Positions 6,585-61,108 of a stretch of DNA of 64,000 nt are shown here, piece by piece. The notes beneath the pieces are model-generated. The model was not told the DNA's origin. It ran no database searches and saw only the letters and a list, made by a program, of their open reading frames with translations. The DNA is from Dryococelus australis (taxonomy: Eukaryota; Arthropoda; Insecta; Phasmatodea; Phasmatidae). Both the position numbers and the translations under genes were made by a program. The DNA lies in NCBI GenBank assembly GCA_029891345.1, contig CM056995.1:215578547-215642546 (forward strand), given 5' to 3'. Position 1 is the first letter of the stretch; each line of letters opens with the position of its first letter.

Positions 6585-8353
6585 GTTATAACAACGAGCT
6601 TTATCGCAGCAAAGGCGAGTGAATAATATTCGTTCACTGTGGATTGACAAGTATGTTTTCACTCTCACGAGAACAAATACATATAGAAAAAAAAAACTTA
6701 AAATTATTTGACCAGAGGGGTAATAGGTTCTTGTTACCTCCTGCCACATGGCGCCAAATTGTGCATATGTGCGTACCTAGCAGTGGCGTGGAGGTATTTA
6801 TGTTAAGTTGAGGGAAATTCGGGATACTTTTTCAATGAAAAAGGATAAAATGAATTTTCACGATACCGCTTAAAATTCAGGAGAAATGTTCAACCAGCTA
6901 GTACGATATCATATTACGATGTTACACCAACTTTTACTCATATTGCATTTGAAAACGTTTTTTGCATTTCTTGCGATAATTACGAGAGGGTAGGAGGCGA
7001 GGAAAGTGGCACTGACAATTAATATTTTAAAATTTTTTCTTTAAGTGTTTACAATTTATTTTTTAAAATTCTTAACGGGCATTGTTTGTGCTTGTAGTCT
7101 GCCAATACTTAACTTAACATATGCTTTTTTTGTGTAATTGTAATGTAACGAATGTAAAAATATCATATGAGTTTCATTTTATGCAAATAAAAAAGGGAGA
7201 TTTTGACACACAGAAAAGGAAATTTGTTCTTGAACAGTTACCAACACTTTCTGGATGTATCATAGCTTTGTCATCTAAAGGATATATATATATATATATA
7301 CTCGATACATATGTGGTCAGGAGGCTACATTTTATAGGCTCTTTCGAGTCACTATGTTCTCAGGCCACAATCACGTTGCCAACACCAAAAATGCCATGGG
7401 GATATATTAATTAAAAAAATTATTATCTTAGGAATAACTTACTAAACTTCCTTCGCTCAGTTTATAACTAAGAGGTGGTTAGAAATATTATTATTTTTTA
7501 AAAATATATAGCATATCAAACAAGGACAATTTCGTAACTTTACACGATCGCTGCACACGTGCTTCCCTCTTCCTTTTGATGTTTTGTGACTTTCCTGCTG
7601 TTATGTTTACCAAGACGAGACCGTTTGTTTTCGATTAGGTTTGTTAGAAGGACGTTTATAATACAAAAGGTTCTGAGAAACTGACGAGTCTCCAGTCTTC
7701 AGTTCATAAAGTAATTGTAGAAAGTACTGAAAGCCAACCGCCAAAATAATGTAGGTATACCAGTTTCAAACTGGACAAACAATAGGAAAACTACTTAAAA
7801 ATAAAGCATCTTAGACAACGTTTATCTAGGCGAAGACGGATTCCATAGATTCGCTAAGTTTGTAATCACGATAGCCATTACCTGGATCCATAGCGCTTCA
7901 TCTTACTGATGTGCTTTGACGAATGTTATGTTGGCTATACAACTGCGACGTGTTTACAATTTGTAACTAAAAAATAATAGCTCAACGCAATCCATGGCAG
8001 TGTCGCCTCTCTCTTTGTAGGCGGTAAGTGCATGTTGCAAACCCATAGGGAAGAATAGAATACAATAAACCGATGTTGTCACCTCCTTTTCCCATTGCGA
8101 CTTGCATCAACAGCCTTCATTTATTCCACCCTTATCCCCTTGGCTCTTTTCTAAGGAATGGCGAAGACACACATTCTTTCCTTTCGATATCCATATGTTC
8201 CTCCATGGGGCTTAATTCTGCTGTCATAGTATGGCAAGCTTCCGAGCCCTATGCACAGGTATTTTTCTGTAGACGCACAATTGGCACCATTTATTTTGAA
8301 GCTAGAGCTAGCAGTAAACTTTGAATGAATAGTGCAGCGGGGGTGAATTACTA

Positions 8354-8759
8354 AATGGAGATTTTTGGACATTCGTCATTGCGATGCAGATGTCTGTCGA
8401 AAAAAAAAAAATAACACGAAAAAATACTCAAATAAGACAAGTAACCTATGAACGAGAAAATAAATATATGAATACAAGGCTGGAAAATTTCCAGAGCGAA
8501 TACATTATACTGTGTTTGCGCGAGTTTCTTCGTTGTCTTTGTTTGCCAGTGTTGTGTTATTTGCGTAAGCAGATAACTAGCCTTTGTCGTCTTCGGTGTT
8601 TTTTGACTCTACTCCCTCTTGGAATTTTCCAGTGTTGTATACATATATTTATTTTCTTGTCCGTAGGTTACTTGTTTTATTTAAGTATTTCTTCATGTTC
8701 AGTCTTGTTTTTCTATGACACAACTGCACCGCAATGGCGAATGTCCAAAAATCTCCATC
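8354..8759. mobile_element. Palindromic TA-flanked MITE, 406 bp
   Basis: Inverted arms of about 150 bp. Left starts AATGGAGATTTTTGGACATT, right ends (reverse complement) GATGGAGATTTTTGGACATT. Similarity continues inward through TTGCGATGCAG and the CAAGTAACCTA block to about 8500/8610. It is flanked by TA on both sides (8352-8353 and 8760-8761). The 126-codon open frame inside is a by-product of the arm sequence and not a gene. Confidence 0.85.
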
Positions 8760-8813
8760 TATAGCTTGAAGTTTGCCATTAGTAACATACTGCAGGCAAA
8801 CACAGGCTTTTTT

Positions 8814-9589: not shown

Positions 9590-10135
9590 AAGTGACAACC
9601 ACAACAGAGTAAATTTGTCCTGGAACGATAGCGGCCTTGACCTGGGTGTGACCTTTAAACACAATGACATTAGAATAAACTTAAAGATAACAATTGCAAA
9701 CATTTGGGAATATCATAAAAAAAATCGGAAAACTTTCATTATTGGCAATGACCACCATATTTCATTTACATGACTTCATGACCTTGATCTCAAAAGAACT
9801 TGAACCATAAAAATCTTAAAAATTCAGAAAAAAAAATGGCAAAAATATCGTGGTTGTGATCAATAACCACGATCTTGGATTTACATCACTTTGACCTTGT
9901 CCAAAAGTGACCTTAAACACGAACAATCGATAAAAATTGCAAAATTAATTTTAACAAATGATAAAAACAAGGGAGATATCACATTATTTACACCGACGAG
10001 CATTTTGAATTAAGGCGAACCTGACCTTAACTCCATGCGACCTTACACCCGAAACAATTAAGAAAAATCGTAAAATCTTAAAAAACCATACTATATCATG
10101 GAAAAACTAAAAAATTAAAAATATTATTAAAGTGT
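9590..10135. repeat. Degenerate tandem repeat with TGACCTTGACC-like motifs
   Basis: Units of roughly 110-130 bp each contain a (T)GACCTT motif, a T-poor AAAAATTGCAAAAT-type stretch and a GACCACCATATTTCA or AACCACGATCTTGGA block followed by TTTACATxACTT. Divergence is high. The theme resembles the long arrays at 14.56 and 34.6 kb. Confidence 0.55.
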
Positions 10136-14480: not shown

Positions 14481-14559
14481 CCATATGTGCAAAATATAGG
14501 TCATTGGATATGCAAAAATTGCAAATCTAGGTCACACCAAGCTAGAAATAGTAAGTAGG

Positions 14560-15260
14560 TCAAATTATCAGAAGTAGGTCACATATCAGAGGTTAAGGTA
14601 AAGGTCAAGTTCAAATATAAAAAAATATACAGAACGTACATGCTCCCACTACTCCCACACCCCCCCAAAAACACACCTAAAACAATCATAAAAATCGAGA
14701 ATAACTGCAAAAAATCTGGAAAATGCTCAAATCTATGAACTTATAATGTTATGCCACCCTCGCCCCTCCCTCACCCACAACCTGACCAATAGCCTCCATC
14801 CCTTACAACCACCCTCCCAATCATAAAAATCGAGAAGAATCGTAAAAATAAAAAATTCTAACTATTGGGGAACATACAGTGTTACTCCACCATTTATACT
14901 AGTTCTTCGATATTTTATATACATTTTTTTTCTCAATTTTTGGAGTTTAAGGTCATTGGGGTTAAGGTCTACGTCTTCAAAATCAAACATGAGACTCAAG
15001 TCATCAATGTAATATGTTCCCCGATTTTTAGAATTTTTAAAATTATTTTTCGTGATTGGTAGAATAGGGTGAGGTGTGGGGTTTTGGCTATGGGGTTTTG
15101 TGGGAGCTGTGGCCGGGGGGGGGGGGGGCAATGTATGGGGTAAGGGTGGAGTAATATTATATGTTCCTCGATTGTTTGAATTTTTTGGTTTTTGCGATTT
15201 TTCTCAATTTTTATGATTTGATGGGGGTAAGGGTTGGAGTTGGTTAGAGTGGACTTATTG
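14560..15260. repeat. Inverted array of C-rich / G-rich units (foldback-like)
   Basis: The left half has AATCATAAAAATCGAGAA followed by C-rich tracts and GGGGAACATA. The right half has the reverse complements: TATGTTCCCCGATTTTTAGA, TATGTTCCTCGATTG, CTCAATTTTTATGATTTG and G-rich tracts including a run of about 15 G at 15114-15128. The switch occurs near 14930. Same theme as the palindrome at 34.6 kb. Confidence 0.65.
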
Positions 15261-15379
15261 GATATAAATCCCGTTCTTCAATTCACTGATGAGTGAAGAT
15301 ATCTCAGTAATGTGTGATAAACCTCCAAGTTGCTCCTAACCAATTAAAATTCTGACTATACAAACAAGCTTACTGATGT

Positions 15380-16500
15380 CTTCAGGAAATATGTAGCCAT
15401 GTTCTAATCGTTTGCTTTCTTCACATCAATCGTCGCAGGAAACTCATTAGGGAGACGCGTAAGATCGTCAGGAAAATCACCATCACATTCATCTCCTTCG
15501 TCATCAGCATAGTCTTCAACATCGTCATTTTGTGCTTCTTCATCAGCACAGCCATCACAGATTTATTTCCTTGGCAAAAAGGGCGTTGTTGTTGGAATTA
15601 GTCCTCACAGCAGCTGGTGATACATTTTTTTTGAAGTTCGTAATTTCACATGCCATAATAGGAAATATATAATAATTAGCACCAGCTGACTGTATCGCAC
15701 GTTGTTCGTCGCTTGTACAGCCTGTAGTCATCTCGTCGCCTGTGAATGTAGTATGCAGCATATTAGCGAGCTGTAGTGACGCCAACACGTGCTGTTCCCC
15801 TGTAGGAGGCAGAGCACTATACTTGCAGACCTTGGTGCATCTATTCAAATTATCACTTCGAGCGAACTGCCTACACTGTAAAAAATAATAGGAAAATTGT
15901 CAGATAAGTGCAAGGTAATATTCGCAATTCGCGCCCACCCACCAGCCAATGTCAAGCATTTTAGTGTTGAGATTTCAGTTACTATTCGTCAGAGGATATT
16001 GGTAATAAAAATTTACAGTACTAACACTCCAGGATATTTTTTAATACATTTTATTACACAATATAGTTAATATTCCTTTACTTGTATGGGATTCCCCCCA
16101 CCTTTGTCAGGTACTTCTCTCGTACGATTAGGGAATAGTACTTTACTTATAAATTTACTCTACATTTAAGAGGCAATTTTATCTTACATGTAGAGGTAAT
16201 TAGCTTCCCTTACATGTAAGGGAATTTTACCCCAGTTTTTTACAGTGTAAAACAGTTAACATAGCTCATTTCCATACGAGGTGGGTTCATCAAAACTTCA
16301 CTCTTCTCTTGTGGATGGACTGTGTGGCTGTAGGCATAAGCCTTATCGTAGTATCGCCCCGATCGACAATCTGACGAATAAGGTGCTTGCCTTGGCTCCA
16401 CATTCATTGCAGTCAGTCCTAAGTACAAGTACGCACGAATAATCTCCAGTACAAGGAGAGCAAGGTCTTCCAAATCAATGTTTACACACAAACTCCTAAA
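15380..16500 (-). pseudogene. Unidentified coding-like remnant split by a CACTG MITE
   Basis: On the minus strand two open stretches flank the MITE. 16491-16250 encodes an N-terminal-like piece (...IDLEDLALLVLEIIRAY..., ending MEMSYVNCF). 15870-15555 continues (QFARSDNLNRCTKVCKYSAL... to NNNALFAKEINL). A further acidic stretch in another frame (GCADEEAQNDDVEDYADDEG) lies at about 15440-15560. The composition looks protein-derived, but I do not recognise the family. It lies inside CD36 intron 1, on the same strand, and I see no CD36 motif in it. It may be a decayed transposon ORF or a processed gene. Confidence 0.35.
15874..16247. mobile_element. MITE with CACTG...CAGTG termini, 374 bp
   Basis: The left end CACTGTAAAAAATAATAGG and the right end (reverse complement CACTGTAAAAAACTGGGG) form short TIRs. 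TA flanks both sides (15872-15873, 16248-16249). The interior has repeated TTACATGTA(A/G)xGG motifs. It interrupts the coding-like remnant. Confidence 0.75.
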
Positions 16501-23968: not shown

Positions 23969-24189
23969 CACTACGATTTTTTTAATTGTGGCATTTATGT
24001 GTGACCAAACGAAGCCCATCGTATCGGTAGCGGACACCTGCACAAGTATGTTATGATCATGACATGAATCAGAATCTACCAACATTTTTATAGGCATAGT
24101 TGGTTGTGATTTAAGAAACAATAGTGTTAGGCCTTTGAGACGTAGAGCGTATGAGGCCAGCTTGAGTAATAGAAAATATAATTTTCCGT

Positions 24190-24960
24190 GCTCTTCTTGC
24201 TATCAACCCATCTATCTCCCGATCAAATTTCGTAATCTTTCCATTAATCTTTTCATCAGTCTTCCAATATTTAAATCTATCTTTTCATGAGCCCTCCAAT
24301 CTTTATATCAATGTTTCGATCACTTTCGCAACATTTTATCAATATTTCAATATTCTGTTCAATCTTTCGAACAACTTCACAAGTTTTCTATAAATCTTTC
24401 AATCTTTCGTCCAATATTTCAATCATTCTCACAATACTTACATAAATATTTTAATCAATCATCCAATATTTCGGCAAATTTCGCAATATTTTTATGAAGC
24501 TTTCAAGTATCGTCAATCTTGCGATCAATCCCGCAATTTTTCGATCAATCTATCGATCAATCTTGCAATCTTCCAACCTTTCCATCGAACTTACGTTCAC
24601 TTTCGTAATATTCCCATAAATATTTCAATCTTTTTTGCAATATTTCAATCTTATATTCAATCTTTCGATCTCTTTGACAATATTTTAATATATTGTCTAA
24701 TCTCTCGATCAATCTCACAATATTTCCATCAATCTTCCAATTTCTAAATCAAACATCCAATATTTCCATCAGCGTTTCAATCATTTGATCAATATTTGTA
24801 TTAATTCTCCGATCATTCCATTAGTGCATCTACCATTCAATAAAGCTCTTCTTAAATATTAATCTTTTCATCAAACTTTCAATCATTTAACAATCGTCCA
24901 ATTAACATCCCAATGTACTTATATTAATTTTTAATATTTCGATTAATGATCAATACATAA
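24190..24960. repeat. Degenerate satellite-like array of TTTCAATCTTTCGATCAATC
   Basis: About 770 bp of imperfect repeats built from AATCTTTC, GATCAATCT, CAATATTTC and CATCAATCTTCC. Spacing is roughly 20-24 bp, strand composition is pyrimidine-biased, and no unit is exact. No coding frame. Confidence 0.75.
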
Positions 24961-25144
24961 TCATTCCATCGGTTTGTCTCTTGTCCTGCGTCCGTACATA
25001 CCAAAAAACTATTCATTCTCCGACTGGGTACACACATTTGTACTTGACAACTGCATTAATGTTTTGAATGGAGTATGCTATCCAATCATTTTTAGCTCTC
25101 TTTGCGAAGAAAAGAAAGCCTTACGAGATAACTTTCCCGTGCGT

Positions 25145-27344: not shown

Positions 27345-28840
27345 TACTGTTCAAGAATGATTATTTTTATAGTAGCACCTATAAGTGGCTTTATAATTTA
27401 GAGGCTATGACGACGATATACAACTAACTTACAGTAATGTGCATAGTTTTACGGTTTTATAAAATATCAACAAACAGCTGTTAGACATTTTGAAGTAACG
27501 CGATAGTTTTCTAGTACAGATAAAATTTTATTTACAGTAATCCAGTAATCTTTCCTATAAAAATTTCAATGAATTTTGTTTACACAAAATTATGAAAACA
27601 ACAATCGTCTCTATGTACAAAAATCTAAGGATATTTCTATTGATGCCTAGCTCGTAATTATCTTTCGGTTATTGAATATGGAATCTTCCTAAGTTTTATA
27701 GTAGACATATATACATATATTGGCTGCGTTATTATAGTAAAATGGCATGGTTAGAAACCAAAAATTAAATATTTGAGTCAACAACATAGTTAATTATAAT
27801 TATTTTGGGCATCAATTTTTTGAAAATTTAGATCCATCCATTTAGTCAGTTTTTGTGAATTTTTTCATTTGTTTTTTCAAATTTTCAACCCAATTTTTGT
27901 GGTCATTAATTTTATGAACACTAATTTTCATTTTAAATTCTTCCGATTTTATTTGAATTTAAGTCTTGTAAGGATGAAAAATATCTATTCCACAATTGAT
28001 ATTAAGTTAAATAAAAAATATTTATAGTTGACTGTTTGAAAAAAATCTTACTAGTCTAATGAGCACCACTTTTGTTTTCCTAAAATATTTATCAAAATAT
28101 TACTTTTTATCAAATTTTTACTATTGTTATTGTTTGTAAAAGTGTGCTTAAATTAAAAACAAATTGAACAGATTGTAATGAATAAGTTGAATTTTCGAAT
28201 TCGCCCTCATTAGAATGAAATTTATTTTTATAAAAATTCCTTGGTAATTGTTAAGGTCAAACATAGTAATTTAACTTATTTGTGCCATACACTGCATATA
28301 CCGGAAGAGTCCAGACTGAGTGTGTAAATTTTGGGAGGAGATTCCTTACTAGAAATAAATCAGATATGTGTCGGGGCATTTTTCGATAAAGTGAAAATTA
28401 TGACCGTTACGTGCAACTGATGATCAAATTTGAAATTACATTTCGACAAATATTTCCGAAACCATAGGAAACTAAGGGACGTAATTCTGAACTGTGTTAC
28501 AGGAAAGGGAGATCTTGAATCACTTACGAGTGTGGTGATAGTATCATCACACTTTACTGGCTGTTACTTTCAAAATACTGTTATGTAATGCACGTTTTCG
28601 TACAGTATATTAATCCGAATGTGAAAATCATCGAATAAAGTAATTTTGTCAGCACTCGCTTAGGCTAATAGTTTTCGCAATGTCAGTATTTGTATGTTTA
28701 AAGGTGTGCGTAAAAATGTTTGAGGAATATGCAAACTGAAATACAGTGTAGCCAACGATCTAGGCGTTCTACAGACAAGCATACATGGAACCACCGTTTT
28801 GTTCATTTGAAATGTCTGTCGACAAGTTACCACGGAAGCG
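27345..28840. other. AT-rich intergenic DNA, nothing recognised
   Basis: No open frame above 60 codons, no tandem or inverted structure that I can see. Confidence 0.5.
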
Positions 28841-33800: not shown

Positions 33801-34620
33801 ATCTCTACGTACTGATCAACAAATTGTTTTGCATTAGTGTCACATGTAACAAGCTAAAACATTGCCATTCATTAACAGAAATATTGTATGTAACAATACA
33901 GGAATAAACCAACTATCCACGTCATATTCAAGGCAACGCAACCGGCTAGCATCATATCAAGCATTAGTTCCCACCCATCTCCATGATAGCGTGGTTACCT
34001 CGCTATTTGATCATCTGAGCTGGACTCGACAGCACAACATCTTTGTGGTTATGTGCGCATTCTCGTTAGTCTTTATCGCAGCTCAGTAGTCTTTCATGAT
34101 CCCTGGTGGTATGGTACTTATTTATACCATCCGTATTATAAAGGCAATATGTTATAGATGAATCGTGTTCTCAGTGTCTAATGACATCCCTTCACCTTTT
34201 TGGTTACTCACCATCATACATTCCAAATCATTAACAAGGCTTGTCCATGTCTGCTTGTACCTACAATGGACAATGGCTAATTCATACACTACGCTGCAAA
34301 GTTAGTTTGTTTACATAACCCCCAGGCATTCTTGAGCACACCTTTAAACATATAAATGTTGATATCGTGGAAAAAAAGTTAGCTTCAGCGAGTACCGACA
34401 AGAAAAACATTTTGTTGCTTTTCACATTTTAATTAAAATACCGGACGTAATGTGCATTACATATCAGTGTTTCGAAAGTAACAGCCAAAATATGGCGATT
34501 AACCCCATGCTCGTACCGGAGGGATGATATTACAACTACACTCGTAACATGTTGAAGGTCTCCTGTTTCCTGTAACATTGCTCGAAATTATGTTGCATGA
34601 TCTTAAATAATTTCCGAAAG
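33801..34620. other. Intergenic DNA, nothing recognised
   Basis: Probably includes the tail of the mariner-like element, but no matching terminal repeat was found. Confidence 0.4.
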
Positions 34621-34624
34621 AACT

Positions 34625-36625
34625 TGACGAAATGAGTAGAACGGTTATGGCGAGTCTGGGAAAAGGGCAGAGGGCACAGGCACCAGGCACCGACTGGCTG
34701 TCATGTTGTGACGTCCCCCTACCACCATATCGGATCTGAGTCATTTCGACCTTGACCTGACGACCGTAACCGTGACCCGTGCCTGTGTCCTGGGATAACT
34801 CTGAAACCAAAATATTAAAATAATAAAGTTCTAGGAAGTTAAAAAAATTAAATTAAAATAATCGAGGAACATAATGTTTGCCTCGCCATTCATCCGCTCG
34901 CCCTAACCTACACCCCTTCCCACCTGCCTACCCAATCATAAAAATTTAATAACAATCACATAAATTGAAAAAATTCTAAAAGTTGAGGTCTATTAACATA
35001 GTCCCACCCTCCCATTCTGCTCCCTTCACAACAATAACAAACACCCTCAACCCTCACCCCAACCCTCTCAATAACAACAAAATCGGGGAAAAAAAAAAAA
35101 AAAAAAAAAAAAACACTTGCAAAAATTCGAAAAAAAATGTCTAACAATTGAGAAGTATATGTTACCCCACCCTCCCCTTCTCATCATAAGCAACACCCTC
35201 ACCACCCCATACGCCCTCCTAATAATTAAAAAAATTGCAAATATCGAAAATGCTCTACAAACCAGGGATAATTTAATGTTACACCGCCATCCCCCAGCTT
35301 GACCCTAACAACCTAACCAACACCCCACCCCTCATCCTTACAATCATAAAATTCGAATGAATATAAAAAAAAGTAATAATTTTTAAATTCGAGGGAAAAA
35401 ATTAAACTGTTGACTCCGACCACCATGTTGGCTGTTGTGGACTTTGACATTGACTCCATTGACATCGAGGGAAAAACTATTTACCTTATGCAAAAACAAA
35501 GTTGTATGTGTGTGACCCTGAAGGTTATATTCTCATAAAGGTGGCATAACACAGTCACTCCCTGGTACGACGATCAGCAGACAACTGAATCCCTGCCACT
35601 TAATTTCATTGAATATTTCGTCAGCTCCCAACACTCCCTCATCCCTCGTGATTGACTTAGACCGTACTGATGATCATAACAAAGGACCATACCGACCAAC
35701 TATACTAGCCAACGACTGACTGCACCCAAAACTGTCTCCACTGGAGTCAGTTTTGGATGCAGTCAGTCTTTGGTGGATTCAGTTTTAGATGCATCAGCCA
35801 TTGCCTTTTATTTATTTATATTTTTTTTAAGATTTGTGTTATTGGAGTCAATATCAAGGCCGACAACAACCAACAGGGTGGTCGGAGTCATCAATATAAT
35901 TTTTCCCTCTCGAATTTTAGAAATATATTATATTTAGTTTTCTTGTGATTTTTCTCGATTTTTATGATTGAGGGGGGGGGGAGGGAGAGTGAATGGTGGG
36001 AGAGGGGATGTGGTTAGAGTGGTGGGGTGAGCGGGATGGGAGGATGGGGTATTGGAAATGAACTTCGATTTCTATAATTACTTTTTCGATTTTTGTGATT
36101 TTTATCGATATTTTATGATTGTTTTGGAAGGAAGGCAGGATGGTTGGATATGGGAAGCGGGGAGAATGAGAGGTGTTATATGTTCCTTGATTAATTAAAT
36201 TTTCCCCATTTTATTCGATTTTTCTCGATTTGTTGTATGATTTTGGTGGAGATGATGGTTGAGGCGTAGGGTATGTTTCTTTGGTTCGTTGGGTGTGAGG
36301 AAGGGGAGCGTGGACTAATGTTAATGTACCTCAATCTTTCGACTTTTGTGTTTTTGTTGAATGTTTTTTATGATTTGAAAGTTGGAGGGAGTGGGCGGTG
36401 TTGATCAGGTTGATCAGTGTGAGGGTGGGGTAACATTTATAATCCTCGATTTTTTTAATTTTCTTCCATTTTTATTCCAATTTTATAGATTAAAAAAAAA
36501 ATTGGTTTCAAAGTTATCCAAGAACACGGGCGTAACGTCAACGTCAAAGTCACTCATATCTGATATGTTGGTCGGATGACATCACAATATGACTGCTGGT
36601 CGGTGCTCACCATAACCTTTCTACT
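34625..36625. repeat. Long imperfect palindrome, about 2 kb (foldback-like)
   Basis: Two arms of about 0.9-1.1 kb in inverted orientation meet near 35735. Matching pairs run from the outside to the centre. GTAGAACGGTTATGGCGAG (34637) pairs with the complement of CTCACCATAACCTTTCTAC (36607). GCACCGACTGGCTGTCAT (34685) pairs with ATGACTGCTGGTCGGTGC (36590). GGGATAACTCTGAAACCAA (34792) pairs with TTGGTTTCAAAGTTATCC (36503). GACTCCGACCACCATGTTGG (35414) pairs with AACAGGGTGGTCGGAGTC (35872). The hairpin centre has ACTGACTGCACCCAAAACTG (35715) and CAGTTTTGGATGCAGTCAGT (35747). Left-arm spacers are C-rich and right-arm spacers G-rich. No transposase is present. Confidence 0.88.
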
Positions 36626-36629
36626 GAGA

Positions 36630-38100
36630 TGTAATTTCAAATTCGATTTTTAGTTGCGCGTAGCGGCCACCATTTTCACGTTATCGAAAAATACTCAAGA
36701 AATACCGATTCATGTAAAAAAAAAGAAAATGCAAAGTCTTTATCAAGAAAACAGAAATGAGTGGTGATAAATATAGTTGAAGATTAGTGTAAAGAACTAC
36801 TCTACATCACAAAAACCCTCAAACATAATTAGGAAGAAAAAGTTATGCATCTCACGTTTCTATAAATAATATATTTACACTCCACGTTATCACAACGAGG
36901 TCATAGTTGAATTATAAGTGTCACAAAATCCTAAACTTTTGAATCGTGGTCAAATCACGCTCCAAAATAAAACATTTTTACTATTTTTTTAAATTTATTT
37001 TTATACACAGTCAAACGCCTGCATAACGAAATTGTACAATTTATCGTTAAAATAATTTTTTAACTTATAGCTTATGGAGAGTTTCCGTGAATTCACGGGT
37101 AATTATTCGAAATATACGAAAAGTCCGTTATTAAGAAAAATATTTCCAAACTTTTAAGGAGAATTTTAGAGTATTTCACCAATATTTTTCCGTAAAATGT
37201 CAGTTTTTAATAGTGCATAACTAAAATGATATTTCTTTCATAATATGATAGCGAAGGGATGTGATTTTGACATCCGACTGTTTATGATGTGTTGCGGATG
37301 GCAAAACAATCAATACCTTCCAAATGTAAGCACATGCGCGAGGCGGGGTAGTACAGCCTACCACCTTGAATGGATAAACTACTTCTTGCTGAAAAGGACA
37401 AGCCAAGAGGCAATATCCGTCTTACCCATAGATTAAAGCTGAGGTAGACCGTTTATTCGTCTTCTGTGCATGTACCTAACATTGATCTACCCCAAAGGAA
37501 CACATCTGTCAAAGTCACATGTTCAACAGTGATGAACGTGTTTGTTTACTAAATCTTGTATATGTAAATTAATTACTTTCAAAAATTTGTATTTAATAAA
37601 ATTGAATTACAAATTGGCAGGAGTAAGTATACAAATATCCTAAAGCACTTGTTTATTAATAGGTTTTCTAACCCGCAATTAGATTCGACGCCTTTTTCGG
37701 AAGTAGATTCGGCGGAAAAGCAGGCCAATGTTGGGGCACGGAGACTGGTTGCGCGCAGCCAGCAAGATCGGCCTAGCTGACCTTTAGTCTATGGTTCTAC
37801 CCCGCCATACTATGCTCAGTGAATTCACTCATCTGAAATTCCAGTAACGGCAGCTGTTGTTCCGATACTGCTGACGAGTACAGATGGTCACAGCCAGTAG
37901 TTTTAGCGGCGGAGGGAACATTGGGTAGAGTGCGCACGTAAGATGCTCGATACAGCCTCTCTCTATACTCTTCAACACCGGCTTGCTCTTCTGCCGACAA
38001 TACTACTGCAAACAACGCGGATAGTTGATTTTAAAACACTGTTCATGTAAGTAAGTGCTTTGAGATGTTGTACACGTCCTCTCATATAGTTGTAACTACA
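36630..38100. other. Intergenic DNA, nothing firm
   Basis: A lone pogo/Tigger-like end (CAGTCAAACGCCTGCATAAC) occurs at 37010 with no partner found. The 72-codon minus frame at 37797-38015 looks mildly protein-like but is unrecognised. Confidence 0.35.
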
Positions 38101-50959: not shown

Positions 50960-52855
50960 AAAATTATTTTCTACATTGTTTAGCATACTGCATCTTTTTT
51001 TTTGGCGCAATATGAAATAATAGTCAAAAAGGCGTGACATTGGAGGAACACGACTTTACATAAACGAATGTGATGCGTTGTAAGAGTTTTAATGTTAGGC
51101 CGATACCTACTGTTTTCGTACAAATCTAAAATTACAAAATCAGTACGCACTACAGCTCAAATTCATTACTCAAATTATAAGAATGCAATGAAATATTTTT
51201 TGAAAAAAATTGTTATATATATTTCGTTTGTAGTTAAATTCTTACTTTTGAAATAAAATTTTATGTCAATAAAAGTTCAAAGCTAAACTTTCACAGCAAG
51301 AGAACCAAATGTCAAATTTCAAAGAAATTACATCATTCTACTCCTGTAGCTTCAAGAGGCACTTCAGCAGAATTAAAATTTTGTGTTGGGAATAAAATTT
51401 TAAAATTTGTACCAATTAAGTTTTTAAAATTAAATTGTTTTATTTTCACAAGAAATACATAATGAATATTAATTTACTGTTGGTTTTGGTATTTTTATGA
51501 AGTTATCATCGATACCGTGTCACGGAAATATAAAATGTATGAAAATATAGACTTTTGAACAGTTTTAAGAACGAACCACAACCGCTCTACAACAACAAAA
51601 AAAAAAAACTAAAAACACAGTCTCTAGAGTGGTCCTGGGAGCCCCTCGAACACACCCCACAGCCGTGACGTACTCGCAGGTCACTGGTCCCACGCCACGA
51701 ATGTCACCCTCCGTACACAGATAAGTCCTGTACATCATTTCAATGTCTCCCGAAACTCAGTGCCTACGAGGTTAAACGCTCTGGTCGTGAATTCTTCTGC
51801 ACTATATGCGTGACACAATTATGTTTTCCACTCACTGGTTCGCTCGCTCTTTCGCTAACTACAACTGGGCTGCCACTTTCTTTCGGCTGAGATGTGCGAA
51901 GGCCAGTATATGCAGGTCCGTCAATTAGGTCCTGATTGTTCGACAGCTTTCCTGCCCAATGTAGCATAAGAGGGCGTTGAGATGTTTCTTGGCAGACAAA
52001 GCCATTCTCCGTCTCGCTAGCCACAGAACTGTCACATGTTTGTCAAAACACCGAAACTTGTCCTGCTGGTTGTAGTGTCCACCTGTCCCTTTCCATCACC
52101 CCTTATATATTTGTCTTTCCAGCCGCGAGTGTGAATCACCTGCGGGGAAATATGCAAAATGGGCGTGATCCCATATGGCAGGATGTATCCAGGACGATGT
52201 CACGAACTTTCAGGGATCATGGGAGAAGGGAACCAGCGTCCATTTAAGATAAACTCCAGTTTGTAAACACCTCTGTCGAACGATACAATGAAAGCAGCTT
52301 TGGGGTGCTCATTACAGTGGAATACTACAAAAATTTCTTAAGTACTTCTATAGTGAACTAGTTATTGTTTTACCCTGCAGTACATACTTAAATATTTTAC
52401 TACAAACTCATAACTATGTCACAATATGGATTCTACCAAATTTTGGTAGAATCGATATTATGACAGTGTTATGGGTTCGCAGTTTAGTTTTTATACCTAT
52501 ATTGCAGCTTAAAGTCAACAGCTGGTTCGCTAAAGATGCACTTTTAAAACTTTCATGTTTATAAATACAATTAAGCAAGAAACACCAAGAATCCAAAATG
52601 GCGGATGAAGCTTACTCTTAAAGGACTTTGCGAACTAATTTAATGTACTAATGTACTAAGTACACGACCGGAAAGCTATGAAGGACTCAGTTCACTAAAG
52701 GAGTTCAACGGCACGTCTTCCAGCGTCAATGCAGGCATGTCAACATCACACGAAGCTCTGTCGCATCCAGTGTCAACACACCGAATGCCATCTACTGTGC
52801 ATTAGTGGAGCATACATTCCCCACCACCTTGAGCTATGCTACACCTACAGGACAT
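50960..52855. other. Intergenic DNA, nothing recognised
   Basis: A GC-rich patch at 51620-52220 includes an 86-codon minus-strand frame (51764-52024) that I cannot identify. An inverted pair TCTACCAAATTTTGGTAGA sits at 52430. Confidence 0.4.
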
Positions 52856-52975: not shown

Positions 52976-53710
52976 TACTTTACCTTAGGAGATTACACGC
53001 CCCGACCGCCGTGGTTATTAAAAAACTTCACCATAAGATCACACGGTTCTGTGTTCCTATCCCAAGTAAGTCACTGAGAAGTGTTGAATTTTTATTTCTA
53101 ATTGTGGTAGACAATCTTCTTCAGGTGGCGGGAAAGGAGTCATTAGTGCAGTTTAGTATCGGTTATGTGCGTTAAAGTGGGCACCTTTGAAACAACCTTT
53201 CAAAGAAATCACTATTCATAACTTCATACACCGGATGTTTTTGAACACCGACAATCACCAACAGGTTTATTCCTCACGAAAATGTAACACCGAAATGCAC
53301 ATATACTTTTTCCCAGAAATTATTTTTACAAGTGGTGCTCCGCCACAAAATCCTGATATGTCAAGAAACAAACATTCTGTTTTGAAAGTTATGCATTAAT
53401 TTCTTGAAAATTGTTTGCCTGAGAATGTGCAGAGAAAACGATATTATCTGTTAATTTACACATGCTGTTTCATAAGACGTCTTAATTTTCGAGTATATCT
53501 TACGGTTACAAAGTTTTATTCAAAAATAAAGATGCCGACTCACATTTTCACCATGAAAGGGAACGATACTGCCAACCGCGTGTTCTGAGGCATAAAATCT
53601 CTGTTCCACAAAACACGATTCACTGATTTGTTTCTTAGTCGCAAGTAGTCTCTAATATTTTGACGAAAATAATTTAAAATTGGATATTTGGGACCGCAAG
53701 ACTCTCTTAA

Positions 53711-54098
53711 GGGCCCTGCCTACCGGTTGGCATCTGCGAAATTTTAATAGAAAATCCCAAGTTAAGAAAATTTTGCTTTAGTGCGTTAATTTTAAAGATA
53801 GGCGTTTGAAACTAAATGTATTCTTCACAAATTTCCAAGGAGAAGATCCCTACAGTTGTGATGTTTCCGTAACATGCGTAGCCTAATTGGATAGAATTTT
53901 AAAAAAATACGTTTTACGAAAAAGTATACACTTCCTACCTACATTGAAAATATACGCTTATGAAAAAAAAAAAAAAATTCTCGAAGAATACATTTTGTTT
54001 GAAAAGCATATTTATAAAATTAACGCACGGAGGTGAAATTTCCTTAACATGGGATTTTCTATTACAATTCCGCAGCAGTCAGCTGGTAGGGAGTGCCA
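53711..54098. mobile_element. TTAA-flanked MITE T1, 388 bp, with about 115-bp arms
   Basis: TTAA at 53707-53710 and 54099-54102. The left arm starts GGGCCCTGCCTACCGGTTGG; the right arm (reverse complement) starts TGGCACTCCCTACCAGCTGA. Pairing continues through TAATAGAAAATCCCAxGTTAA and GTGCGTTAATTTTA to AAATGTATTCTTC. TTAA duplications are typical of piggyBac and Kolobok. Confidence 0.88.
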
Positions 54099-54369
54099 TT
54101 AATAATAAATAATGTGGGTAAGTGATACATATACCTGCCCGAGTTTGTCAGTGTTCTTCACGAACAGCCTATATATTACATTACTCACTGGAATATATGC
54201 TTCATGTTAAGTTGGCAGCGAATTTATAAAAGTAGTTCTTAACACCTGAAGTATTGCGAGTGTAATGTTTAAATACGTGGCCGCTGAACTTAGCATTTCT
54301 TCTTTTGTAGACGTTATAGTATGGATTTGTGTATAAGTAACGAATTGGCAGTCCTAACAATTCCAAGAT

Positions 54370-54839: not shown

Positions 54840-56500
54840 AACGGTTTGCAAACAGCATTGACGACAGCATAAACAGTCCAGCTGGAGTCAACGATGGTAC
54901 TACTAAAGATTAAATCGGTATGTTGGTCGTAAGCATGCTATTAAACGAATACTTCAGCTTTATATCTACAATCCAATAGCTCGCTGGTCGGACCTGGTAT
55001 TCCAAATTTTAGGAAGAGTTTTTACTTTGGCGGGGAAATATATATATTGTTAATTTTCGAGCATGCTTAATAATAACCTGAAGATTTTTATGGAAGAGCT
55101 GGGGGAGCAGGCTGAATGCTGAAAACGCCAGGGAAGAGAGAGTGATCTGTCGCCGCTCACACCACACGAAGAACTGTGATGTGGCGCACCTTTGATTACA
55201 TTAATTATGTGCAGGGGACGACGAGATATTATGCGACCAACAACCAATCACGAGCAGGAAATGTGATGTTATCGTGAAATCACCAGTACAGTCTAGCGGT
55301 AGTGGCGGGTCTTGGGCTGTAGTGTGTAAATGGTGGTCGGGTGACGACACAACATGGCAGCCGGCTGGCTTCGGCTCTGCTCCCCCATCACTTTGTGCCG
55401 GCGCAATCCATTTTATTATACTGACGATGTTGGAAAATGGCTTTTGAAGTAAAAGAAATCACATTGAAATTCATTTTCCTCAGTGATTTTGCAGAAGAGT
55501 GATACCTAAGTCCTGGAAGAATATAATTTTCACTGCCATCGTAGATTTGAAGTGCGAAATTTCCGCGACATGTAGCATTATTCTCAGGTTCAGGAGCAAG
55601 ATTTTCGAAACAAAAAAGGTTCTGGCGAAACTCTCGAGACCGGAGGAAAATTTGTTCTACAACTTTACGGTGACGGTGAAAATAAATAGTTGAGATATCT
55701 TTATTCGTTAAATCATCGACTAAAACTAACTTTTAATCTTCCATCATTTCCTCAAATGTAATCTGTTCTTCGATATATCTCTTTTCAACATTAGTAGATT
55801 CAGATATTCCTTTGGGAAGGGAAATGGGGAGGGCAAATATTTCCACTTTTGTGTTTTGCAATGGGAGGGGTGCATGTTTTCATCATAAATTTGGGAAACA
55901 ATATTAAATTAATCAAATAAAATCACGATTTGAGACAATTAATTATGATAATATTTTAGTCCAGTTTTGAAACACATTCGCAGGGGAGTTTCATGTAAGT
56001 GTAATTTTTGTCGGTGTCTGTTGGTGAGGGTAGAGGAGGGGGGGGGGGGTATCCCCTCTCAATCTTCTCCGGATCCACCCCTTGTTTTCAAACGTATCAC
56101 AAAATTCAAAATTGAATTGGAAACGGATCGATTTTCGACGACAAACAGGAGCTGGAAAGTAATCCCGAATGGGCAAGCTCTTAGATTGCTCATTTAAAAC
56201 ACTTGCACACCCATAATTTCTCATAGACTTCAATACCTTAAAATTGTAAATTCCACGAAGAGAACATTTAGTTGTAGAACCCTGGTTGAACGATCTGAAA
56301 CAATGTAGCGGATTGTTTTGCTTTGATTATGACACAGTTATAGAACAAGAGGAATGTGATGATCCTGTTGATGTGCAATTTTTTCGCTTTATTTACTTAA
56401 CAATAACTTCCTCCTGAAAAAAAAGTGTATTAAAGCAATACATCGCCCTTTTCAATCAGGAATAGGAAAGGAATAGACCAGGACGTGCATTCACATGGAG
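54840..56500. other. Intergenic DNA, nothing firm
   Basis: A GC-richer patch at 55100-55430 and poly-G at 56038-56049. No gene motif. Confidence 0.4.
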
Positions 56501-57805: not shown

Positions 57806-57812
57806 AATTAAG

Positions 57813-58191
57813 GCCAGGCTTCACCATACGTAGGCGTATAGGGAATCAAAGGCTAAATACGGACAAAGATCTCTGAGTCATTTTTTTTTGATAGTATTTT
57901 CAACTAAGGCTTTTTTGTTTAAGATTGAACGCATCTACATTGGTAAACCATTCAAATTTAAATTTTAAATGCACTTCTTAATTATTTATAAAATGTCATA
58001 ATTTTATAAATAATGAAAACGTACATTTGAAACTAAAACAATAAAATTCGGTAGGTTTACAAATCTAGATGAGTTCAATTTCTAACTGTAAATCTTTAGT
58101 TGAAAATACTACCACAAAAAAAAGACTGATATATCTTTGTCTGAATGCAGCCTTTGATTCCCTATACACCCATGCATGGTGATGCCTAGCC
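57813..58191. mobile_element. TTAA-flanked MITE T2, 379 bp, with about 145-bp arms
   Basis: TTAA at 57809-57812 and 58192-58195. The left arm starts GGCCAGGCTTCACCATACG; the right arm (reverse complement) starts GGCTAGGCATCACCATGCA. Pairing continues through GTATAGGGAATCAAAGGCT, ACAAAGAT, GTATTTTCAACTAA and TTGAACxCATCTA to GTAAACC. Long arms and size resemble T1, sequence does not. Confidence 0.9.
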
Positions 58192-58199
58192 TTAATTTC

Positions 58200-60211: not shown

Positions 60212-60349
60212 CTTGCAAATTATATTAGGTCTGGTGCCCACGTACCGACAATTGACGTGCGGCGCTGAATTTGCGTTCTTCGAAGACACGAGGCCATACT
60301 TCACAAAAAAATTTTATTTAATTGCCTGAAAAAGATTAACATAAGCACG

Positions 60350-60917
60350 ACATAAATGTAAATATTTGTAGCCAAATTAATATAGTTTTAAATATATAGC
60401 ACCGCAAAGTCGAAAATTTCGGAATACGGGAACCTAAGTTTCTAGGCTCCTAATTAACTTTGCCAATGAAATCCCCTGTAACGTGATATATATCATTTCA
60501 CAACATATCAATTAAGTATCAAGGATATTTAACAATCGGTACTCGAATACTGGCATCCTTATCTCTTTTAAAATAGGTATTGATGTTTTTGCCAACACAT
60601 ATTTTATAAACCGAAAGAAAATAATATTAATATTTATTAGTTTATCTTGGACGAATAAAAATGTTTTGGTAAGAACATCTATAGCTATTGTTAAAAAAAT
60701 GCGGAATGCCAGTACCCAAGTACCTGTTGTTAATTATCCTTATTTCTTAATTAATATGGCGTGTATACTATATAGATCACGTGACATGTGATTTACTTGG
60801 CAAATTTAATGAGGAGAATAGACACTTGAGCTGCCATATTCCGAAAATTTCGAGGTTTCGTTGCTATATCTTGGAAACTATAATCATTTGAATTCAAATA
60901 TTTACATTTACGTGGTC
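60350..60917. repeat. Near-complete palindrome, about 570 bp
   Basis: The arms 60350-60634 and 60635-60917 are reverse complements along almost their whole length. Outer pair: GTAAATATTTGTAGCCAAAT with the complement of TTTGAATTCAAATATTTAC. Then CGAAAATTTCGGAATACGG with CCATATTCCGAAAATTTCG, ACTTTGCCAATGAAATC with GATTTACTTGGCAAAT, TACTGGCATCC with GGAATGCCAGTA. The centre is AATAATATTAATATTTATTAG. There is almost no loop. Confidence 0.88.
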
Positions 60918-61108
60918 CTTGTGTAAATCTATTTCATATAATGAAATTAAAAATGATCGTGAAATACGGACTTAACTGATATGAATGAGTGCGCACGTAG
61001 CTGCTGTGCGCCTGCGCCACCGTACGTCCACTCTGCGTGCAGTGTTCGCCGCAGCTACTCCCAAGAACGCTGCGGCGCCCCCACGTCAACCTCTGATTCT
61101 CTACAATG

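What the first reader, a model, noticed from the sequence alone, without database searches (positions are those of the whole stretch)
34625..36625. 2-kb palindrome with C-rich left arm and G-rich right arm
Arms of about 1 kb are collinear in inverted order from 34637/36607 to a hairpin centre near 35735. The transcript of either strand would form a very long dsRNA. There is no transposase, and the right arm has many G-runs (G-quadruplex prone). This is the largest unexplained structure in the window and may be a foldback transposon family not previously described.
Basis: seen in the sequence. Interest (0 to 1): 0.8.

Follow-up and report, generated by a model that had tools for sequence, protein, structure and literature searches.

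The report
Foldback remnant of a Maverick transposon
The 2-kb palindrome is an old, gene-less jumping-DNA copy made almost only of the two long inverted ends of a Maverick (Polinton), a kind of virus-like transposon that is plentiful in this stick-insect genome; it suggests that foldback elements can arise from Mavericks and may help to sort some of the genome's unclassified repeats.

Summary
The palindrome is real: 34635-36625 (1,991 bp), arms of 1,107 and 884 bp, 629 of 790 aligned pairs identical. It is a transposon insertion. It lies between 6-bp repeats GAAATG/GAGATG, inside an older repeat whose other copy in the window (28378-28736, - strand) lacks the insert. The genome is almost certainly Dryococelus australis. 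The end motif occurs at 639 places at up to 3 mismatches, reversed control 0. Twelve related elements give 56 of 72 matching bases in 6-bp target duplications against a mean of 23 for shuffled pairing. Six-bp duplications, long inverted repeats and AGTAGT ends are the Maverick/Polinton signature. The same kind of end bounds an 18.7-kb pair that encloses an uninterrupted double-jelly-roll capsid frame. So this is most likely a non-autonomous, foldback-shaped Maverick derivative, presumably moved by Maverick proteins supplied in trans (inferred). Foldbacks are mostly assigned to Mutator, with Galileo (P) an exception; Maverick-based ones I did not find described. The dsRNA and G-quadruplex claims are weakened.

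The parts
34629..34634 (+). left target-site duplication GAAATG
   Evidence: pairs with GAGATG at 36626-36631 (5 of 6 alike)
34635..35741 (+). left arm (long terminal inverted repeat), starts AGTAGAACGGTTATGGCGAGTC
   Evidence: end-profile positions 1-191 at 34635-34825, E 1.6e-48; this end was one of the 22 used to build the profile
35462..35708 (+). stretch of the left arm without a good partner in the right arm; in relatives such as L028 its homologue lies on both sides of the core
35709..35773 (+). central hairpin, 32-nt arms with a 1-nt loop, 91% complementary
   Evidence: (I4)
35742..36625 (-). right arm (inverted repeat), outer end CCATAACCTTTCTACT; lacks about 33 bp near the end relative to the left arm
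   Evidence: profile 52-195 at 36607-36483, E 3.2e-25; this end too was in the profile
35394..35464 (+). well-matched inner block of the left arm (83% complementary to 35837-35907)
   Evidence: I1
35837..35907 (+). partner of the inner block in the right arm
   Evidence: I1
35947..36233 (+). degenerate subrepeats (GATTTTTCTCGATTT and like) in the right arm, spaced 150 and 110-120 bp
   Evidence: D3, D5
36626..36631 (+). right target-site duplication GAGATG
34309..34628 (+). left flank: an older interspersed repeat into which the element inserted
36632..36692 (+). right flank: rest of the same older repeat
28378..28736 (-). second copy of the older repeat without the insert (paralogous empty site with a single GAAATG)

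Best explanation
It is an old, non-autonomous, foldback-shaped insertion built almost only from the two long terminal inverted repeats of a Maverick/Polinton element, joined nearly head to head with the gene-bearing core missing. Shown: the palindrome, its ends, a 6-bp target duplication and a paralogous empty site; recurrence of the ends in the genome; 6-bp duplications in related elements; the same kind of end on an 18.7-kb pair that encloses a Polinton-type capsid frame. Inferred: a Maverick integrase supplied in trans recognised the ends and inserted the copy, making the 6-bp duplication; the core was lost earlier, by internal deletion or by snap-back copying during protein-primed replication; the subrepeats in the arms may be multiple protein-binding sites.
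For: Palindrome and chance control. Empty paralogous site with a single GAAATG. Dispersed relatives: 53 matches, 40 of 732 first-look candidates scored; 40 matches, 40 of 114 candidates scored, for the outer 201 bp. End motif at 639 places, reversed control 0. Target duplications over 12 elements with both ends: 56 of 72 bases match, 8 of 12 at 5/6 or better; shuffled pairing mean 23, maximum 47 in 20,000. Vertebrate Mavericks: 6-bp duplications, TIRs 46-1,447 bp, most common ends 5'-(AGT)2//(ACT)2-3', intact elements 12.7-24.6 kb (passages of PMC8097293). Inverted pair of such ends at C8:144376861/144395542, 18,682 bp, around a double-jelly-roll hit with a 408-aa frame without stop; profile positions 1-196 match the first 180 bp of its left end at E 2.2e-29, and 0 of 200 base shuffles hit. 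For the 100 ends listed and the 126 capsid places, four ends at three capsid places lie within 10 kb on the inner side and none on the outer side, 0.037 expected each; ends within 20 kb pair inward 6 times and outward 0 times. For the 100 ends the figures are 2 and 0 (the same two places). Sizes run from 0.5 to 18.7 kb. Relatives that keep a core show arms around it. [quoted passage not shown]
Against: No Maverick gene lies in the window copy. Polymerase (PolB) places did not fall near the ends: 0 within 15 kb for 170 ends x 47 places, 0 within 40 kb for the 100 ends x 47, and the end profile gave no hit at E<10 in about 9 kb on either side of three PolB places. Listed capsid and PolB places did not fall together either, so these lists have little power. 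The first 170 ends gave 0 capsid places within 15 kb (0.19 expected); the positive lists came later and from another variant of the end. If the 18,148 first-look capsid candidates are real there is one per about 190 kb, so a single neighbour, as in L078, can be chance. Four of 12 elements match at 4/6 or less, among them the 18.7-kb one (GACAAT/AACGAT, 4/6). L012 gave 1/6 with its left end at 1529 and 5/6 with the end at 1528, where the profile's position 1 would fall. In the first scan of five elements 9 bp was second best (23 of 45, against 18 of 30 for 6 bp), carried mainly by L035 at 7/9, whose left end is uncertain. The window's end reads AGTAGA, not AGTAGT, and shares 100 of 147 aligned positions with the 18.7-kb element's end. 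The Maverick integrase was not sought.
Confidence: 0.85

Rival explanations
1. A Mutator-type or classical foldback (FB/Tetris-like) element, moved by a Mutator transposase.
For: Long internally repetitive inverted repeats and a variable middle are the foldback plan (passages of PMC4079207). L035 fits a 9-bp duplication at 7/9, and 9 bp was second best in the first five elements.
Against: 8 of 12 elements match at 5/6 or 6/6 over 6 bp; Tetris makes 8-10 bp. The ends match the Maverick motif and bound an 18.7-kb pair with a capsid frame.
Confidence: 0.06
2. A member of another 6-bp superfamily (IS3EU/GingerRoot, Dada) that merely resembles Mavericks.
For: IS3EU usually and GingerRoot make 6-bp duplications (passages of PMC10045372); 6-7 bp for Dada is recalled.
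Against: IS3EU ends are TA..TA, GingerRoot mostly TA..TA and occasionally TG..CA; here AGTAG..CTACT. A capsid frame inside a pair of the same ends is not expected.
Confidence: 0.05
3. A local inverted duplication or assembly artefact rather than a mobile element.
For: One locus in one assembly made from error-prone long reads (PMC10268593, passages); no reads could be examined.
Against: Arms differ at about 20% of aligned sites (K2P 0.24); target duplication and empty paralogous site; relatives with the same ends elsewhere.
Confidence: 0.02
4. A hairpin locus kept by the host as a source of dsRNA or endo-siRNA.
For: 503 and 522 pairs spanning over 400 nt predicted on the two strands.
Against: Longest identical run in the arm alignment 14; longest helix 14 or 21 bp; arm divergence fits decay. 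No transcript or small-RNA data were available.
Confidence: 0.02

Closest known systems
Maverick/Polinton elements
   Same: 6-bp duplication, long inverted repeats, AGTAG ends; such ends pair at 17.9 and 18.7 kb, the latter around a capsid frame
   Different: The window copy has no gene, is 2 kb long, and consists of two arms of about 1 kb that nearly meet
Foldback elements (Tetris and other Mutator-type ones) and Galileo (P-type)
   Same: Long, internally repetitive inverted repeats, short or missing middle, no transposase
   Different: 6-bp instead of 8-10 bp duplications (Tetris); Maverick ends
Maverick MITEs reported in Helicoverpa
   Same: Non-autonomous, assigned to Maverick, 6-bp duplication (table passage of PMC9033116)
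   Different: Those are up to 800 bp with 10-42 bp inverted repeats, 6 and 5 sequences in two species; here arms are about 1 kb and the end motif is found at hundreds of places

Membership tests
Maverick/Polinton (non-autonomous derivative) | 6-bp target-site duplication | tested here: met
   GAAATG/GAGATG in the window (5/6) with empty paralogue; 8 of 12 elements at 5/6 or better
Maverick/Polinton (non-autonomous derivative) | terminal motif (AGT)2..(ACT)2 or close | tested here: met
   AGTAGA..TCTACT in the window (one base off); 24 of the 100 listed places match the AGTAGTATR variant of the 25-base end exactly; motif
Maverick/Polinton (non-autonomous derivative) | long terminal inverted repeats (46-1,447 bp in vertebrate Mavericks) | tested here: met
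   arms 1,107 and 884 bp; range
Maverick/Polinton (non-autonomous derivative) | ends shared with a full-sized, gene-bearing Maverick | tested here: met
   18,682-bp pair around a capsid frame; end matches the profile at E 2.2e-29; capsid places on the inner side of ends only
Maverick/Polinton (autonomous) | own capsid, polymerase, ATPase, protease, integrase genes | tested here: not met
   longest frame overlapping the element 117 codons; capsid and zinc-finger queries gave no hit within 34635-36625; hence only a derivative is claimed
Maverick/Polinton (autonomous) | PolB or integrase in relatives with these ends | tested here: inconclusive
   PolB 0 coincidences with little power; integrase not tested
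Mutator-type foldback | 8-10 bp target duplication | tested here: not met
   6 bp; one element, L035, fits 9 bp better
Mutator-type foldback | Mutator transposase in autonomous relatives | not tested
   no Mutator profile was searched
Galileo / P superfamily | 7- or 8-bp duplication (recalled) | tested here: not met
   length scan over five elements: 7 bp 11 of 35, 8 bp 10 of 40, 6 bp 18 of 30 match
IS3EU / GingerRoot | TA..TA (or TG..CA) ends | tested here: not met
   ends AGTAG..CTACT

The most novel reading that the evidence does not exclude
The foldbacks are integrated 'snap-back' defective genomes of a virus-like transposon: during protein-primed copying the Maverick polymerase switches strands near an end, yields a molecule with two copies of one end, and the integrase inserts it. 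Together with the numerous relatives that carry a zinc-finger frame between the same arms, they would form a satellite swarm living on Mavericks, as satellites and defective interfering genomes live on viruses.
Probability: 0.2. Interest if true: 0.75.

Novelty: new variant of a known kind. Interest (0 to 1): 0.55.

Why it matters
The D. australis paper left 1.56 Gb of masked repeats unclassified (passages). A gene-less family whose ends are those of Mavericks gives a handle to classify part of it. It would add a further source, besides Mutator and P, for the foldback body plan. It also makes testable whether virus-like transposons with protein-primed replication spawn defective palindromic genomes, as some viruses do (recalled).

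Tried and rejected
Chance palindrome: rejected. Assembly artefact: thought unlikely on arm divergence, target duplication and dispersed copies; no reads seen. IS3EU/GingerRoot: rejected on ends. Zinc-finger frame as the N-terminus of the Maverick polymerase: weak only (profile match in L064, about 4 kb upstream of a PolB match, E 4.8e-8; L063 1.2e-4; generic C2H2 similarity is not excluded). For six such frames Pfam gave nothing above cut-off, the PDB only weak matches, best E 0.015 to a zinc finger protein, and IMG/VR no relative. Coding constraint in that frame: substitutions about equal at the three codon positions in the 11 pairwise alignments, so no sign of selection. The 7.2-kb element L066 with both ends: no Maverick gene recognised in its listed frames, which were not scanned against Pfam. 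The capsid piece in L078 was first taken as decisive, then demoted. Co-location of ends with PolB: nothing, little power. PHROGs: only weak matches of unknown function. The coordinate lists were thinned before counting: 170 of 180 listed ends (repeats dropped), 47 of 54 PolB rows (second pieces of one locus dropped), 39 of 53 arm matches (window's own and second pieces dropped), 150 zinc-finger rows.

Full report
WHERE IT IS. The window lies at C3:215578547-215642546 of a 3.415-Gb genome in 646 contigs. One contig is 262,277,254 bp long. The published Dryococelus australis assembly is 3.42 Gb with scaffold N50 262.27 Mb (abstract of PMC10268593 in the listing). I infer that this is the Lord Howe Island stick insect.

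THE OBSERVATION. The palindrome is real. The left arm (34635-35741) and the right arm (35742-36625) align with 629 of 790 pairs identical, score 448; 200 dinucleotide shuffles gave mean 42 and maximum 87. The centre is a 32-nt hairpin. GC skew is -0.31 and +0.40. About 250 bp of the left arm (35462-35708) have no good partner. K2P distance between the arms is 0.24. The longest stop-to-stop frame overlapping it has 117 codons and runs out of it. The RNA claims are weaker than stated: longest helix 14 or 21 bp, one G4 motif per arm.

IT IS AN INSERTION. The flanks belong to an older repeat with a second copy at 28378-28736 on the other strand. Joining the flanks with one duplication copy gives a continuous alignment to that second copy across the junction; a 28-bp gap lies further out in the left flank. 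The element is bounded by GAAATG and GAGATG (5 of 6 alike) and ends AGTAGAACGG...CCTTTCTACT.

IT IS A FAMILY. The left arm has 53 matches in the genome, three of them the window's own arms; 40 of 732 first-look candidates were scored. The outer 201 bp have 40 matches; 40 of 114 candidates were scored. A 25-base end motif occurs at 639 places at up to 3 mismatches, with 0 for the reversed control. Two variants, at up to 2 mismatches, occur at 401 and 333 places, controls 0; these sets overlap, and 100 places of each were listed. In some relatives the arms enclose a core, and several cores hold a zinc-finger frame. That frame has 20,269 first-look candidates; 150 were scored and the listed matches have E 5.6e-44 or better. 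Listed ends and zinc-finger places fall within 5 kb of each other 3 times (170 x 150 places, 0.075 expected), and arm matches and zinc-finger places 3 times (39 x 150, 0.017 expected); one of the latter is the query's own locus.

THE DUPLICATION IS 6 BP. Twelve elements with both ends in hand (the window copy, L012, L032, L035, L041 and seven found as inverted pairs of ends) match at 56 of 72 positions; pairing left and right flanks at random gives mean 23 and maximum 47 in 20,000 trials. Eight of 12 reach 5/6 or 6/6. L012 is one of these with its left end at 1528, as the profile implies (position 2 at 1529); with the end at 1529 it gave 1/6. The poor ones are C11:89.80, L041 and L035 at 3/6 and C8:144.38 at 4/6. 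L035 fits 9 bp at 7/9, its left end is uncertain, and 9 bp was second best in the scan of the first five elements (23 of 45 against 18 of 30 for 6 bp).

WHICH SUPERFAMILY. Vertebrate Mavericks have 6-bp duplications, TIRs of 46-1,447 bp, most commonly the ends (AGT)2//(ACT)2, and intact sizes of 12.7-24.6 kb (passages of PMC8097293). IS3EU and GingerRoot also make 6 bp but end TA..TA or occasionally TG..CA (passages of PMC10045372). Polinton genes are plentiful here: PolB has 6,289 first-look candidates (91 scored, 54 matches), the double-jelly-roll capsid 18,148 (126 scored, all above cut-off). In one polymerase locus a capsid piece lies about 8 kb away on the same strand. The decisive step was pairing of ends. 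C8:144376861 and C8:144395542 are inverted ends 18,682 bp apart, and a capsid frame of 408 codons without stop lies between them. Profile positions 1-196 match the first 180 bp of its left end at E 2.2e-29, with 0 of 200 base shuffles hitting, and 100 of 147 aligned positions equal the window's left end. A second pair is 17,913 bp apart with TTCCGT on both sides. For the 100 ends listed and 126 capsid places, four ends at three capsid places lie within 10 kb on the inner side and none on the outer side, 0.037 expected each; within 20 kb the ends pair inward 6 times and outward 0 times. For the 100 ends the count is 2 and 0, the same two places. Against this, the first 170 ends had no capsid neighbour within 15 kb (0.19 expected) and no polymerase neighbour, and the flanks of three polymerase places did not show these ends within about 9 kb. 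The capsid piece in the 9.2-kb element L078 (PF21738, E 3.7e-20) is supportive only, since such pieces may occur about once per 190 kb.

HOW IT WORKS. Distances between paired ends are 0.5, 0.5, 0.6, 1.5, 1.5, 1.7, 2.0 (window), 2.5, 2.8, 3.0, 4.0, 7.2, 9.1, 9.2, 9.9, 12.0, 17.9 and 18.7 kb; for six of these 18 (1.5, 1.5, 1.7, 7.2, 9.1, 9.9 kb) the duplication was not examined, and nested insertions may lengthen some. I read this as long Mavericks and their internally deleted derivatives, with the palindrome near the short end. It would have moved by Maverick integrase in trans (inferred). The core loss may be simple deletion or snap-back copying (inferred, untested). The insertion looks old: one mismatch in the duplication, arms alike at about 80% of aligned sites, and the two copies of the host repeat alike at 75% and 84% in the two aligned pieces.

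KNOWN AND NEW. Foldbacks mostly seem to belong to Mutator, with exceptions (passages of PMC4079207); Galileo belongs to the P superfamily (abstracts in the listing). Maverick MITEs of up to 800 bp with 10-42 bp inverted repeats have been listed in Helicoverpa (table passage of PMC9033116). [quoted passage not shown] For foldback-shaped Maverick derivatives I found no description in searches of the held library (listings, plus passages of some of the papers). Repbase and most subscription papers were not searched, so this is not proof of novelty. I file it as a new variant of a known kind.

Noticed in passing
14550-15540: A second, shorter C-rich/G-rich palindrome sharing units with this one, followed on the - strand by an acidic fragment like the C-terminus of the zinc-finger frame (profile E 2e-5), so probably another decayed family member.
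   Followed up: partly
55328-55422 and 9596-10038: Further matches to the outer-end profile (E 3e-14 at 55.4 kb; weak ones at 9.6-10.0 kb).
   Followed up: no
8352-8761, 52340-52543, 53707-54102, 57806-58197, 60291-60972: Five other inverted repeats, 72-82% alike; this window is rich in palindromic elements.
   Followed up: no
24240-24815: Minisatellite-like array (AATATTTCAATC units, GC skew -0.39 over 24001-25000); similar-looking arrays lie near the arms of relatives L010, L013, L014, L016, L023.
   Followed up: partly
L009:48-794 and relatives: A zinc-finger frame with about 20,000 first-look candidates in the genome, unmatched in Pfam above cut-off, between arms of the same family; no sign of coding constraint between the copies compared.
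   Followed up: partly
L032, L033, L046 and other outer ends: Many outer ends carry GTGACGTCAC, a CRE-like palindrome (label recalled).
   Followed up: no
L016:1068-1250: An end motif is repeated in tandem, six matches with a period of 27 bp or a multiple of it.
   Followed up: no
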